Both the position numbers and the translations under genes were made by a program. Below the pieces are notes generated by a model that ran no database searches, was not told the origin of the DNA, and saw only the letters and a program-made list of their open reading frames with translations. From an uncultured Erysipelotrichaceae bacterium (GTDB lineage Bacteria; Bacillota_I; Bacilli_A; Erysipelotrichales; Erysipelotrichaceae), in NCBI GenBank assembly GCA_947575425.1, contig CANPNQ010000002.1, positions 1 through 16,678 on the forward strand: a DNA stretch of 16,678 nt, given 5' to 3'. This document shows, piece after piece, positions 7,943 through 14,608 of this stretch (position 1 is the first letter of the stretch; each line of letters starts with the position of its first letter).

Positions 7943-8992
7943 TTATGAAATCGATATTTCTATCGGATGAAAACCATCGTAACTGCTTCCGCTGTAAATA
8001 CCTGTCGCCTTCCCATCTGCCAAGGTAATAGAATAGCTATTGCCATTGTTCAGATAAACCAGCATCGTTTTGATCTGATCCTGATCACGATATTTGCTTG
8101 CTTCATATAAATAACGCACCAGTATTTCCACATCGCTCTGGGTGACTTCCTCCTCGATAGCTACAGACATCATATCAAATCCCCAATAGGTTTGGTAAGT
8201 AAAATCCGGCGCTGTGACACCGATTCCACATGTTCCGCTGTCTGTCAGCTCATAGGTATCAGGAATACCATTGGCATCCATGTCATAATCTATATTCTCA
8301 TAGGGCATCAATACGACACCATATTGAGAAGCGACTTTTTCTCCCTCTGCGTAAAATTCCATATCGACATAGCGACATTCATTTTGCTTATGCTTGACAT
8401 ATGCTCGGATCGTATCATCGTACTCCGCATACATGACATGAGAAAGATCTATCTCCTCATAAATCTGCGCCTTTGGATTCACTGGATCAAGAAAAAGCTC
8501 AAGCTTTTCCAGATAGAACTCATTGGTTTCTTCCGTTTCCTCCCATGTATCATTCGACAAATATTGACGCACACTGATCCCTATACCGATACAAATGGCA
8601 ATCGCCACGAAGCCTATCCATATCATCAAGCCGGCATTCTGCGACCGAGATTGCCTCCTATGGGAGCTATTATCCAGTTTTAGACCAATCAAATCATCCA
8701 TATTTCGCTTTGTCTGCCGATTCTTATTTCCTGCTTTATGAAAGGCTTCAACGGTATTTGTCTGTGTTTGTCTCGCTTCCATGATGCGCTCTTTTATATG
8801 TCCTCTGTGTACTTCATGATTTTTCGGCTGTGATACGACTTCCTCTCCTTTTGTTAACAGTTTATGCTTTCGCTTTCCCATCGCATAGCTGCTTCTTGGC
8901 AGCAATTTTCCACAGATCGGACAGCGATCACAATACGTCACAACCTGACATTTCGAGCATTTTCTCGCTTCGTCAAAATAATCCAGCTCCAT
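7943..8992 (-). CDS. Zinc-ribbon, single-pass membrane protein with a calcium-loop-like motif
   Basis: I do not recognise the family; 349 residues. Residues 12-27 (CSKCQ to CPICG) form a four-cysteine zinc ribbon (C12, C15, C24, C27, plus C21). A basic, polar linker of about 90 residues follows, ending HRRQSRSQ. One transmembrane helix (about 121-140) comes next, and then an acidic C-terminal domain of about 205 residues. The positive-inside pattern suggests that the ribbon faces the cytoplasm and the acidic domain faces outward. Residues 237-248 (DMDANGIPDTYE) match the DxDxNGxxDxxE calcium loop of EF-hand, dockerin and thrombospondin type 3 proteins. The gene starts 15 nt after the miaA stop, with AAGGAG 9 nt before the ATG, so it probably ends the mutS-mutL-miaA operon. 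The function is unknown; a cell-envelope role is only a guess. Confidence 0.85.
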   Translation of the reverse strand: MELDYFDEARKCSKCQVVTYCDRCPICGKLLPRSSYAMGKRKHKLLTKGEEVVSQPKNHEVHRGHIKERIMEARQTQTNTVEAFHKAGNKNRQTKRNMDDLIGLKLDNSSHRRQSRSQNAGLMIWIGFVAIAICIGIGISVRQYLSNDTWEETEETNEFYLEKLELFLDPVNPKAQIYEEIDLSHVMYAEYDDTIRAYVKHKQNECRYVDMEFYAEGEKVASQYGVVLMPYENIDYDMDANGIPDTYELTDSGTCGIGVTAPDFTYQTYWGFDMMSVAIEEEVTQSDVEILVRYLYEASKYRDQDQIKTMLVYLNNGNSYSITLADGKATGIYSGSSYDGFHPIEISIS

Positions 8993-9926: not shown

Positions 9927-11948
9927 TTACCTCAAAAATTCCTTAATGAGCTGTTTATCACTGAGACAAATAAAGGTGGGACGACCATGGGGACAATGAA
10001 AGGGCTGTTCACACTTCTCCAAATCACGGATTACCTGTTTCATCTCCTCCATCGTCAGTGAACGATGAAAACGAATCGAGGAATGGCACGCCATGGTAGC
10101 GATCGTCAAATGACGAAGTTTTTCTTCACTGAGTATTTCCTCCTTGTGCCATACATCAATCAGATCCTGTAGGAATGCGACCTCATTGGTATCCTGCATC
10201 CACAAAGGAAGATCACGAACAACCAATGCATTATTTCCAAACAATTCAAATTGCAAGCCAAGCAATGACATCGCCTCATTCAATTCCTCCATTCGGGCGG
10301 TGATTGCGCCATCCACCTCAATCGTAATGGGAATTAACAATGGCTGTGTATCCTTATTTCCGGAAAGAATCGCTGTTTGAATTACCTCATAGTGGTAGCG
10401 CTCCTGTGCCGCATGCTGGTCGATGATATAGAGACCGCCCTCTCCCTGAGCGAGGATATAGCTGTTGTGAAACTGACCGATAACCTCCATTTGCGGCAGC
10501 GACTGATTCTTTGGCTTCGGCGTGATTCCCGCATCCTTTCCTTCGATCTCTTTCGCTATTTTCTCCTCATTTTCCTCTGTTTTTTGAAAATTCCATGCAG
10601 ATTCGTCACCATTCTTCTCTTGGGAAATATCTCTTTTATTCAGGGAAATAAGGCAGTCATTTTTATTATACTCCACTTTTGTAATATTGGGTCTTGATTT
10701 TTGCGGATATTGTAATTCCGGCTCCTCCACCATCGGAATTTTCTCTTCGATTTCGACAGCCTCCGCCTTTTTTTGTGGAACCGTTTCCATCATTTTTTGG
10801 CGAATTTTGTCAAAATCCAGCGATGGGAGTTCTTGTGGCTTTGTGAATCCCTCATTGACCTCCTGATGAAGTTTTTTTACCAGCGGATCACGTTGATACG
10901 TAAAATCCAGCTCTGCCATTTCCACCTTTTCCCGCGGTTCTTTTATCTCCGCCTGTACCACTTGAAGTTTTTTCTTGAGCGCTAGATCAATCGTCTGATA
11001 CAATAATTTCTCCAGCTGTTTTTCCTTGGATAAACGTATTTCCCACTTAGATGGATGTACATTGACATCCACTATTTGTGCATCCATATCGATATTCAAT
11101 ACTGCGATCGGATAACGATCCTTTGGCATATAAGCACTGTATGCATCCATGATCGCCTTCTGTAAATGATAGTTGCGAATCATGCGATGATTGATGAATA
11201 AAGTCATATAATATTTTGTCGCACGATTGAAATTCGGCTGTACGATATAGCCGCTGATCTGATAATCATAATCACTATTATCAATCTCTATGGCACTTTT
11301 GGCAATCTCTCTGCCATAGATCTGCATCAGTACCTCTTGTAAGTGATTACTGCCTTTGGTTTGAAAGATCTCCTTGCCATCATGTGAAAGATAAAACGAA
11401 ATCTCCGGATGCGCCAATGCAAATTTCTGCACAATATCAGCGATCAGTGAAAATTCATATTGCGGACGCTTTAAATGCTTAAAGCGTGCCGGCGTCTTTT
11501 GAAATAAATTACGGATTTCAATGCTGGTACCATGTGGCGCAGCGCTTGGATGCACTTCTTTATTTTGTCCGTATTGAATCGACACCTCAGTGCTTTGTTT
11601 TCCGTTATTGGTGCGCATCCGTACCTGTGATACTGCCGCGATGGAAGGGAGCGCCTCTCCACGAAAGCCCATAGTGGTTATATGCCCCAGATCTGCTTAT
11701 TCCTTCAGCTTGCTGGTGGCATGACGCTCAAAGGCAAGCTGAGCATCCTCCTCATCCATACCGATCCCATTGTCACTGATTAAAATGCTATCAATGCCTC
11801 CCTGTGTGATTTGGATCTCAATGCTTGTGGCTTTGGCATCAATGCTGTTTTCAATCAGCTCCTTGACGATACCCGCCGGTCGCTCTACTACCTCACCGGC
11901 TGCGATCATATTGCTTAAATGCTCATCCAATCGATGGATCCTACCCAT
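9927..11948 (-). pseudogene. mutL: mutL with an in-frame TAA at codon 84
   Basis: DNA mismatch repair protein MutL, 673 codons from the ATG at 11948 (AGGTGA 6 nt upstream) to the stop at 9927. The frame is intact throughout except for a TAA at 11699-11697. The N-terminal part (83 residues) has the GHKL ATPase motifs ELIENSIDA and DNGIGM and ends at HATSKLKE. The sequence then resumes in the same frame as ADLGHITTMGFRGEALPS. B. subtilis MutL has [21 protein letters not shown] here, so the TAA takes the place of a residue (Glu in B. subtilis) with no length change; one G-to-T substitution in GAA would explain it. The rest is well preserved: the endonuclease motif DQHAAQERYHYE, ACHSSIR, CPHGRP and a terminal FLR. 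Restart at the ATG at 11672 would give 581 residues without the ATP site. It is a recent nonsense mutation, a sequencing error or, less likely, a read-through codon. Confidence 0.9.
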
Positions 11949-11994
11949 AAAATCACCTGTGCTTTCCCGATTTGATTGACTTTTCTGGATCACT

Positions 11995-12013
11995 GCTCTG
12001 CCAATCACAGAGC
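11995..12013. repeat. Hairpin in the mutS-mutL intergenic region
   Basis: GCTCTG and CAGAGC pair perfectly (6 bp, 7-nt loop) about 50 nt before the mutL start. No T-run follows on the minus strand, so it is not a normal terminator; it may be a processing or stability element. The 154-nt gap (11949-12102) otherwise shows only the mutL binding site and no clear promoter. Confidence 0.3.
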
Positions 12014-12102: not shown

Positions 12103-14088
12103 TTATGACACCAATGCTTTCATTTCATTGACAAATAATAGCGCCTCGATGGGTGTCATCTGTTCGGCATTGACTTGTAAGAGTTTTTCCTTTAATGCTT
12201 CAGCCTTGGGATCACTTTTTTCCATCATGATCGTTTCGTTATTCTTATATGGAAGTTCGCTTATTCCCTGATCTTGTGTCTCCAAATAGCTGAGGATTTG
12301 CTGCGAGCGAGTTAAAACAGCCTCCGGAAGCTTTGCCAGCCTTGCGACATTGATGCCATAGGATTTATCCGCTTTTCCCTCATTCACACGATATAAAAAT
12401 GTCACGTGTTCATCCTCTTCGTAAACCTCCACATGAACATTGCGAATTCCCGGATGCGTATCTGCCAGCTGTGTTAGTTCATGATAGTGCGTAGAAAACA
12501 GTGTCTTTGCATGTATCGTTTGTTCGATATATTCGATCATTGCCTGTGCCAATGCCATTCCATCATATGTTGAGGTACCTCTGCCGATCTCATCAAACAG
12601 GATCAAGGAATCCGCAGTGGCATGCTGAAGCGCATGATTGGCTTCGTTCATTTCCACCATAAAGGTCGATTGTCCCGACATGATATCATCACTCGCCCCA
12701 ATCCTTGTAAAAATCTGATCAAAGAGCGGTAATTTGGCATTTCTTGCGGGCACGAAGCAGCCAAGCTGCGCCATGATCACAATCAAGGCGGTCTGTCTCA
12801 TATATGTGGATTTTCCTCCCATATTCGGTCCGGTTATCATCAAAATGGAATTATCCTGATCCATACACAGATCATTGGAAACATAACGACTTGTTTTTTT
12901 CATCATCTGTTCAAGAATCGGATGTCTTGCCTCTGTCAAACAAATCCTGTGTTCCTGATGGAAGCTTGGTCTTGTATATCCGTTTTCACTGGACACCTCC
13001 GATAATGCATACAGCACATCAATCGTTGCCAAGACATTTGCCAAATCATGAAGCTTCGATATATATACCTTAATCTGATTTAACAAATCCTGAAACAATT
13101 CGTTTTCCAAGCGAACACTGCGCTCCTGTGCATGTACAATCGCATCCTCTTGTTCCTTTAGCTCCGCGGTAACAAAGCGTTCCGCATTCGCTAGGGTCTG
13201 TTTCCGCACATAGCCATATTCCTCTTTGATTTGTGACAAATTGCTCTTCGTCACTTCGATATAATATCCGAATACCCGATTATAGCTGATCTTTAATGAT
13301 TTTACTCCGGTACGTTCCCGCTCCTTGGTCTCTAACTCCAAGATCCATTGTTTTCCATTTTTACTGATGGAACGAAGTTCATCCAATTCCTTGTGATATC
13401 CATCGACAAATACGCCGCCTTCTTTTAGGTTCAATGGCGGTTCTTCTACGATCGCGCCCTCCAACTTCTGATATAGTGCATGGCAGGGATCCACCTGATG
13501 AAATTCCTCGTAGCTGCCACACCCTTGGAAGGCTTCCAAGATCATCGGCGCATGCTCCAGTGTTTTCACAAAGCGCAGAATATCCCGTGGATTGGCATTC
13601 CCATATGCCACTCTTGCGCTCAATCGCTCTAAGTCATATACATTGCCCAAATGCTCTCGCAGCTCATCCTTGGTAATGAAATTATCATTTAAAAATTCAA
13701 TCGCATCCAACCGCTGATTGATCTGTGCTTCCTTTACGAGTGGATATGTGATCCACTTCTTTAACAATCGCGATCCCATGGAGCTTTGACAATGATCCAA
13801 AAAACTCCACAGCGTTTGACTTTTGGAGTTGGTTCTTAAGCTCTGTGTCAACTCCAAGTTTGATCTGGTATGAAAATCCATCTGTAAGAAATCCGTTTCC
13901 TGCAACTGTACTACCGGCTGTAAATGTGCCATGTTTCGCTTTTGTGTTTCACTTAAATAATTGGTCAATGTCGCAAAGCTGCGCTTGATCCGATCATCCG
14001 CAATATCGCTTAATAAATGCACGTAGGAATCCTTACATATATGATCTGTTTCAAAAGATACCGTAATCCCCTGCATTTCCTCAATCAT
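12103..14088 (-). pseudogene. mutS: mutS, large 3' fragment (part of connector, core, clamp, ATPase)
   Basis: 661 codons that continue MutS from the second half of the connector domain (EEMQGITVSFE) through SYLSETQKR-type core sequence (NYLSETQKRNMAHLQP), the lever (DLERLSARVAYGN), the clamp (SYNRVFGYYIEVTK, RKQTLANAERF) and the ABC-type ATPase. The ATPase carries Walker A GPNMGGKST (420-428), GQSTFMVEM, Walker B LILFDEIGRG (495-504) and STHYHEL. The C-terminus (MTPIEALLFVNEMKAL) is complete, so all known catalytic residues are present. The frame begins at an ATG overlapping the stop of the 5' fragment as ATGA, with AGG 4 nt upstream. Termination-reinitiation could in principle produce it as a separate polypeptide, but on its own it lacks the mismatch-recognition domain. 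Confidence 0.88.
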
Positions 14089-14582
14089 TTTACCTGCTTA
14101 TCGATGATCTGCGCCCGCAGCTCTCCGGTTGTCATTTCACATAGCACAATCGCCAGTCCATACTGAAAATCATATAGGGATGCGATATAGACTGATGTCT
14201 TTTCATCGCTGCTTTCCTCCATGATCGTCCCCGGTGTCACCACTTTAATGACATCTCTCTTGACGAGTCCCTTTGCCAATGCAGGATCTTCCAGCTGTTC
14301 GACGATTGCTACCTTATAGCCCTTTTGAATGAGTCTTTGAATATATCCGGAAGCCGCATGGAACGGAATCCCACACATCGGAACTCGTTCCTCCACTCCG
14401 GCACTTCTCCCTGTCAAAACAAGATCTAATTCATTGGAAGCTGTTTTTGCATCTTCAAAAAACATCTCATAAAAATCACCCAAACGATAAAAAACAATGG
14501 CATCCGGATGCCTCTCCTTAATTTCTAGGTAATGGTTCATCATAGGTGTATATTTCCCTCTTACCACAGTTGTTTCACTCAA
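14085..14582 (-). pseudogene. mutS: mutS, 5' fragment (mismatch-recognition domain, truncated connector)
   Basis: 165 residues: MutS domain I with the mismatch-stacking Phe37-x-Glu39 in GDFYEMFF, then [37 protein letters not shown] and the first part of the connector up to [15 protein letters not shown]. It ends at TGA (14087-14085). Compared with B. subtilis MutS recalled from memory, the stretch from TTGE to TQKR should be about 81 residues; the two fragments together supply about 58. So roughly 25 residues are missing, including the usual xREIVV strand, and the frame changes (net loss of 1 mod 3, about 70-76 nt). The best start is TTG at 14582-14580, with GGAAGTGAT 4 nt upstream; a GTG at 14591 is the alternative. 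Confidence 0.88.
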
Positions 14583-14608
14583 GAATATCACTTCCGTTTC
14601 AGGAATAT

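What the first reader, a model, noticed from the sequence alone, without database searches (positions are those of the whole stretch)
11697..11699. In-frame TAA at codon 84 of an otherwise intact mutL
The reading phase is unbroken on both sides of the TAA, and the number of residues between the ATS and GFRGEAL motifs matches B. subtilis MutL exactly, with the TAA in place of a Glu. This is what one base substitution (GAA to TAA) would produce. Endonuclease and C-terminal motifs are intact, which implies a recent change. The lesion removes the ATPase from any restart product.
Basis: partly seen in the sequence, partly recalled or inferred. Interest (0 to 1): 0.82.

Follow-up and report, generated by a model that had tools for sequence, protein, structure and literature searches.

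The report
Stop in mutL, possibly assembly error
A DNA-repair gene in this draft gut-bacterium genome is cut short by a stop signal, but a nearly identical intact copy exists elsewhere and the damage pattern looks slightly more like a draft-assembly error than a repair-deficient strain, so it is a caution rather than a discovery until raw reads are checked.

Summary
The TAA is at 11697-11699 (minus strand), codon 84 of a 673-codon mutL frame open on both sides. A near-identical intact MutL (P0001, on a 17,184-base contig) has Glu there. The gene is not "otherwise intact": an invariant Trp four codons on is Gly and an invariant Leu is Ile. The source is a draft genome (292 contigs, 66.5% complete); sampled contigs hold further out-of-frame deletions (about 11, 4 and 31 bases). 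None of the four deletions is a one-base slip, and all four MutL differences are transversions if single-step, so the usual mark of lost mismatch repair is missing. The sister contig also departs at invariant positions. I favour consensus or assembly error (0.50) over a real mutS/mutL-null strain (0.43). Against my reading: excess lesions outside the window are not significant (P = 0.20), both broken genes among 11 conserved ones are mismatch-repair genes, and three near-complete genomes of the same family show no MutL or MutS1 above cut-off. Reads would decide.

The parts
11697..11699 (-). In-frame TAA at codon 84 of mutL
   Evidence: Sequence; alignment to P0001; Glu in 119 of 119 aligned homologues
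11685..11687 (-). Codon 88 of mutL, GGG (Gly) where P0001 and 119 of 119 aligned homologues have Trp; 12 bases from the TAA
9927..11948 (-). mutL frame, 673 codons from the ATG plus terminator, interrupted at codon 84
11697..12008 (-). Upstream open frame (103 aa from a GTG) holding the start of the ATPase domain
9927..11672 (-). Downstream open frame (581 aa from an ATG at codon 93) with DNA_mis_repair and MutL_C domains, no ATPase match
14085..14093 (-). Junction of an inferred 79-base out-of-frame deletion in mutS (residues 160-185 of P0121 missing)
   Evidence: size computed from the alignment coordinates
12103..14591 (-). mutS, read as 168 aa plus 661 aa; 6 of 6 genus-mates have open frames of 851-862 codons

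Best explanation
The TAA is most likely an error in the consensus of a draft assembly (probably low depth or mixed strains), and the organism's mutL is probably intact. Shown: the stop is in the assembly; a near-identical intact allele exists on a contig of different length; the two contigs differ without regard to conservation; the genome sample holds other small out-of-frame deletions. Inferred: that depth or strain mixture caused it. No reads or depth were available.
For: An intact MutL (P0001) and an intact-frame MutS (P0121) that differ from the window at only 4 and 7 residues besides the start codon, the stop being one of the 4, and the deleted mutS segment. 6 of those 11 differences fall at columns that are invariant in 119 MutL or 115 MutS homologues; about 42% of MutL and 53% of MutS positions are (nearly) invariant, so the differences look unselected; 4 are deviant in the window and 2 in the sister. 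Two of the four MutL differences lie 12 bases apart (chance 0.07 for 4 random sites). All four MutL differences are transversions if single-step. Frame-changing deletions of about 11, 4 and 31 bases in yvcK, mgtE and a cytidylyltransferase-like gene of the same draft. Low coverage or quality is reported to create false frameshifts and internal stops (PMC11017572, passages; that study did not assess MAGs).
Against: Lesions outside the window are 4 of 115 places against 2 of 200 in two genus-mates, P = 0.20, frameshifts alone 3 of 115 against 1 of 200, P = 0.14. Isolated radical substitutions are no commoner than in G002: 30 of 5543 against 15 of 3194. No internal stop in the pieces found of rpoB, rpoC, ileS, mutS2 and mutY. 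YvcK departs at 0 of 104 invariant columns. The 2 broken genes among the 11 conserved ones of the window are both mismatch-repair genes. Short reads do not commonly give a 79-base deletion by base-calling error (own knowledge). No depth was seen.
Confidence: 0.5

Rival explanations
1. Real null: the sampled strain has lost mismatch repair. The mutS deletion or the mutL stop came first and the other gene then decayed without selection; the strain lives beside an intact sister and would be a mutator. A restart at the ATG at 11672 would give a MutL without its ATPase, so inactive or possibly interfering (inference).
For: Both broken genes in the window are mismatch-repair genes. Window MutL departs at 4 of 281 near-invariant columns (one shared with the sister) against a mean of 0.31 in 119 homologues, as a dead gene would. 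Loss happens in this family: 3 of 35 same-genus or same-family genomes gave no match to the MutL query (G008, G022, G024; 98-100% complete), and with family models these three have no MutL or MutS1 match above the cut-off, while a control relative G012 has both.
Against: mutS or mutL loss is said to raise transitions and small indels (PMC10710837, passage); here the 4 MutL differences are transversions and the four deletions are of 79, 11, 4 and 31 bases. The near-identical sister is intact in frame in both genes, so two losses would have to fall in a short time. The sister's MutS also departs at 2 invariant columns without being broken. High counts of departures occur in intact homologues too (P0120: 11; three others: 3). 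A mutY gene is present and open, so a mutY-type origin of transversions has no support.
Confidence: 0.43
2. The TAA is read through, recoded, or separates a working split MutL.
For: Long open frames on both sides.
Against: TAA ends 11 of 14 listed frames of the window, the one in question included, and none of the other conserved genes of the window was flagged with an internal stop. P0001 and 119 of 119 aligned homologues have Glu. The break lies inside the ATPase domain.
Confidence: 0.02

Closest known systems
Spurious pseudogenes from low-coverage or low-quality assembly (PMC11017572; passages seen)
   Same: Internal stop and frameshifts in conserved genes of a draft while a near-identical genome is intact
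   Different: That study did not assess MAGs; depth here is unknown; the excess of lesions outside the window is not significant
Natural mutS or mutL mutators (PMC10710837, passages; PMC7064181, listing and start of abstract only)
   Same: A mutL stop and a mutS frameshift with an intact sister
   Different: Both genes are hit; the changes are transversions and multi-base deletions, not mainly transitions and small indels; no mutation rate is known
Lineages without mutS and mutL (G008, G022, G024 of the same family)
   Same: No working MutS1/MutL pair would be present
   Different: There no MutL or MutS1 match above cut-off remains; here both genes are nearly whole

Membership tests
bacterial MutL | N-terminal GHKL ATPase domain | tested here: met
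   PF13589 and PF02518 in the upstream 103-aa piece, partial because the stop cuts the domain
bacterial MutL | DNA_mis_repair and MutL_C domains | tested here: met
   PF01119 and PF08676 above cut-off in the downstream piece
bacterial MutL | One uninterrupted reading frame | tested here: not met
   TAA at codon 84
bacterial MutL | Endonuclease motif DQHA(X)2E(X)4E (motif recalled) | tested here: met
   DQHAAQERYHYE in the translation
mismatch-repair mutator | Loss of mutS or mutL in the organism | not testable with these tools
   Present in the assembly; reads not available
mismatch-repair mutator | Excess of transitions and small indels | tested here: not met
   0 of 4 MutL differences are transitions; 6 of 7 MutS differences fit a transition, but of these only window S436 is at an invariant column with the window deviant; 0 of 4 deletions are one-base slips. 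Small sample; sister codons inferred from residues
spurious pseudogene of assembly | Intact allele in a near-identical genome | tested here: met
   P0001 and P0121
spurious pseudogene of assembly | Excess of frame lesions across the assembly | tested here: inconclusive
   4 of 115 places outside the window against 2 of 200, P = 0.20
spurious pseudogene of assembly | Reads contradict the consensus | not testable with these tools
   No reads held

The most novel reading that the evidence does not exclude
A gut Erysipelotrichaceae strain lost both mutS and mutL in the short time since it parted from a nearly identical intact sister: a natural double mismatch-repair null caught early, in a family where other lineages appear to have lost both genes altogether.
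Probability: 0.35. Interest if true: 0.45.

Novelty: not a real feature. Interest (0 to 1): 0.18.

Why it matters
If real, it would be a commensal caught at the start of losing mismatch repair beside its intact sister, in a family where three near-complete genomes show no MutL or MutS1 above cut-off, so the cost and gain of the loss could be studied directly. If an error, it warns against calling mutators from one draft genome: the same contig and its sister carry other unselected-looking changes.

Tried and rejected
Recoding, read-through and a split gene were rejected (see rivals). A second mutL copy: none found. A restart product: by eye no clear ribosome-binding site before the ATG at codon 93 (sequence), and no ATPase. 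RNA features in the window: no tRNA and no Rfam match at gathering threshold. Rampant substitution error: not found by clean-flank radical changes; in-frame gaps in the same call were 8 in G000 (37,822 aa) and 1 in G002 (21,349 aa), all of 1 to 6 residues, not tested further. A chimeric yvcK: the downstream half is less conserved in all five relatives compared, so no case.

Rows dropped: of 12 places flagged in G000, three (two in L059, one in L161) were dropped because a longer open frame covers them, and three (L047:12644, L061:1471, L062:7860) because the stop lies within about 25 codons of the start of the match. In the controls L074:616, L129:1943 and L147:16361 were dropped as shadows (the last two on weaker grounds, short frames), L074:6335 was counted for G002 and L147:16630 for G004; L080:14296 (stop near the start, in G004, seen with G002 references) was not counted. 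Counting it would weaken the excess further. A stretch of a distant MutS-like gene on G000:C186 is reported with stops inside but not, and genus-mates G003 and G004 show the same, so I read it as alignment overrun. My earlier notes give 73 and 76 bases for the mutS deletion and about 8 for yvcK; recomputation and coordinates gives 79 and 11.

Papers: one search found 13 papers, listing of 12 seen only; two searches found 0; one search found 1 (PMC10710837, passages read); one search found 5 (PMC11017572, passages read); one search found 22, listing of 8 seen only. No claim of absence from print is made beyond these.

Full report
What is there. The window is a housekeeping block on the minus strand; from high to low coordinate: a PTS transporter gene, mutS, mutL, miaA, an uncharacterised gene, a TcdA/ThiF-like gene, tmk, holB, ricT, rsmI and a two-component pair. 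The TAA is at 11697-11699, codon 84 of mutL from the ATG at 11948, with the phase kept on both sides. The 6 genus-mates held, G001-G006, all have open mutL frames.

The intact sister. A protein search gave P0001, a 693-aa MutL aligning over 693 of 693 residues with no gap and 688 identities. Its longest contig is 17,184 bases, while the window's contig is 16,678; that it is another assembly of the same species is my inference from the different length and sequence (the search tool lists it with '-' for sources, its mark for proteins the window encodes, although the letters differ). P0001 has Glu at 84, Trp at 88 and Leu at 292, where the window has the stop, Gly and Ile; each is identical in 119 of 119 other aligned homologues. 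So the window departs at three invariant columns, two of them 12 bases apart.

The neighbour mutS. It is read as 168 aa plus 661 aa. Against P0121 (847 aa, longest contig also 17,184) residues 160-185 are missing and the frame changes; from the alignment coordinates this is a 79-base deletion if no other indel is present. The 6 genus-mates have open mutS frames of 851-862 codons. P0121 itself departs at two columns that are Gly and Thr in 115 of 115 aligned homologues, not far upstream of the deletion.

Genome or assembly? G000 is a 292-contig draft, 66.5% complete. I compared 41 of its 292 contigs (435,619 bases) with 1.58 Mb of G004: 129 matched places, 12 flagged, 6 kept after inspection: mutL, mutS, yvcK (11-base deletion against P0241), an mgtE-like gene (4 bases) and a cytidylyltransferase-like gene (31 bases), both sized against G004 only, and a stop in a small HTH-like gene (L047:2830-3198). 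Outside the window this is 4 of 115 places against 2 of 200 in G002 and G004 together, P = 0.20: suggestive at best. Isolated radical changes are level with G002; pieces of rpoB, rpoC and ileS, and mutS2 and mutY, have no internal stop. polC gave only weak matches in this incomplete draft.

Signature. Loss of mutS or mutL is described as raising transitions and small indels (PMC10710837, passage). By codon all four MutL differences are transversions if single-step, while 6 of 7 MutS differences fit a transition (one of these could also be a transversion); sister codons are inferred from residues (Fisher P = 0.015). The four frame-changing deletions are of 79, 11, 4 and 31 bases. This is not what a mismatch-repair mutator should show, though the sample is small.

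Family background. Among 60 relatives, 57 matched the MutL query; the three that did not (G008, G022, G024, same family, 98-100% complete) have no MutL or MutS1 match above the family cut-off, while the control relative G012 has both. G022 gave no candidate at all in either search, which may be a peculiarity of that genome. Loss of both genes thus seems possible in this family, which raises the chance that the window's double lesion is real; for this I moved the odds from 0.55/0.38 to 0.50/0.43.

Judgement. Six of 11 residue differences between the two contigs fall at invariant columns, four deviant in the window and two in the sister. Consensus error explains this simply; a real double null explains why the two broken genes of the window are both mismatch-repair genes. 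The evidence does not settle it. I commit to error at 0.50, real null at 0.43, recoding or split gene at 0.02.

Noticed in passing
   Followed up: yes
G008, G022, G024 (same family): Three genomes, 98-100% complete, show no MutL or MutS1 match above the family cut-off: apparent natural co-loss of mismatch repair
   Followed up: partly
L050:1235-2162: yvcK broken by an 11-base deletion relative to a 99%-identical intact protein P0241
   Followed up: partly
L171:3205-3211 and L175:3038: Frame breaks of about 4 and 31 bases in an mgtE-like and a cytidylyltransferase-like gene (names recalled)
   Followed up: partly
L047:2830-3198: In-frame stop in a small HTH-like gene with 61% identity to a G004 counterpart
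   Followed up: no
L147:16630-17733 and L080:14296-15300: In-frame stops in two conserved frames of genus-mate G004
   Followed up: no
P0121 residues 100 and 111: The sister MutS has Arg and Ile where 115 of 115 aligned homologues have Gly and Thr; it may carry errors or be impaired itself
   Followed up: no
window 7943-8992: 349-aa frame between miaA and the TcdA-like gene with no NCBIfam match and only a 98-residue, 40%-identical match in the G002 counterpart region
   Followed up: no
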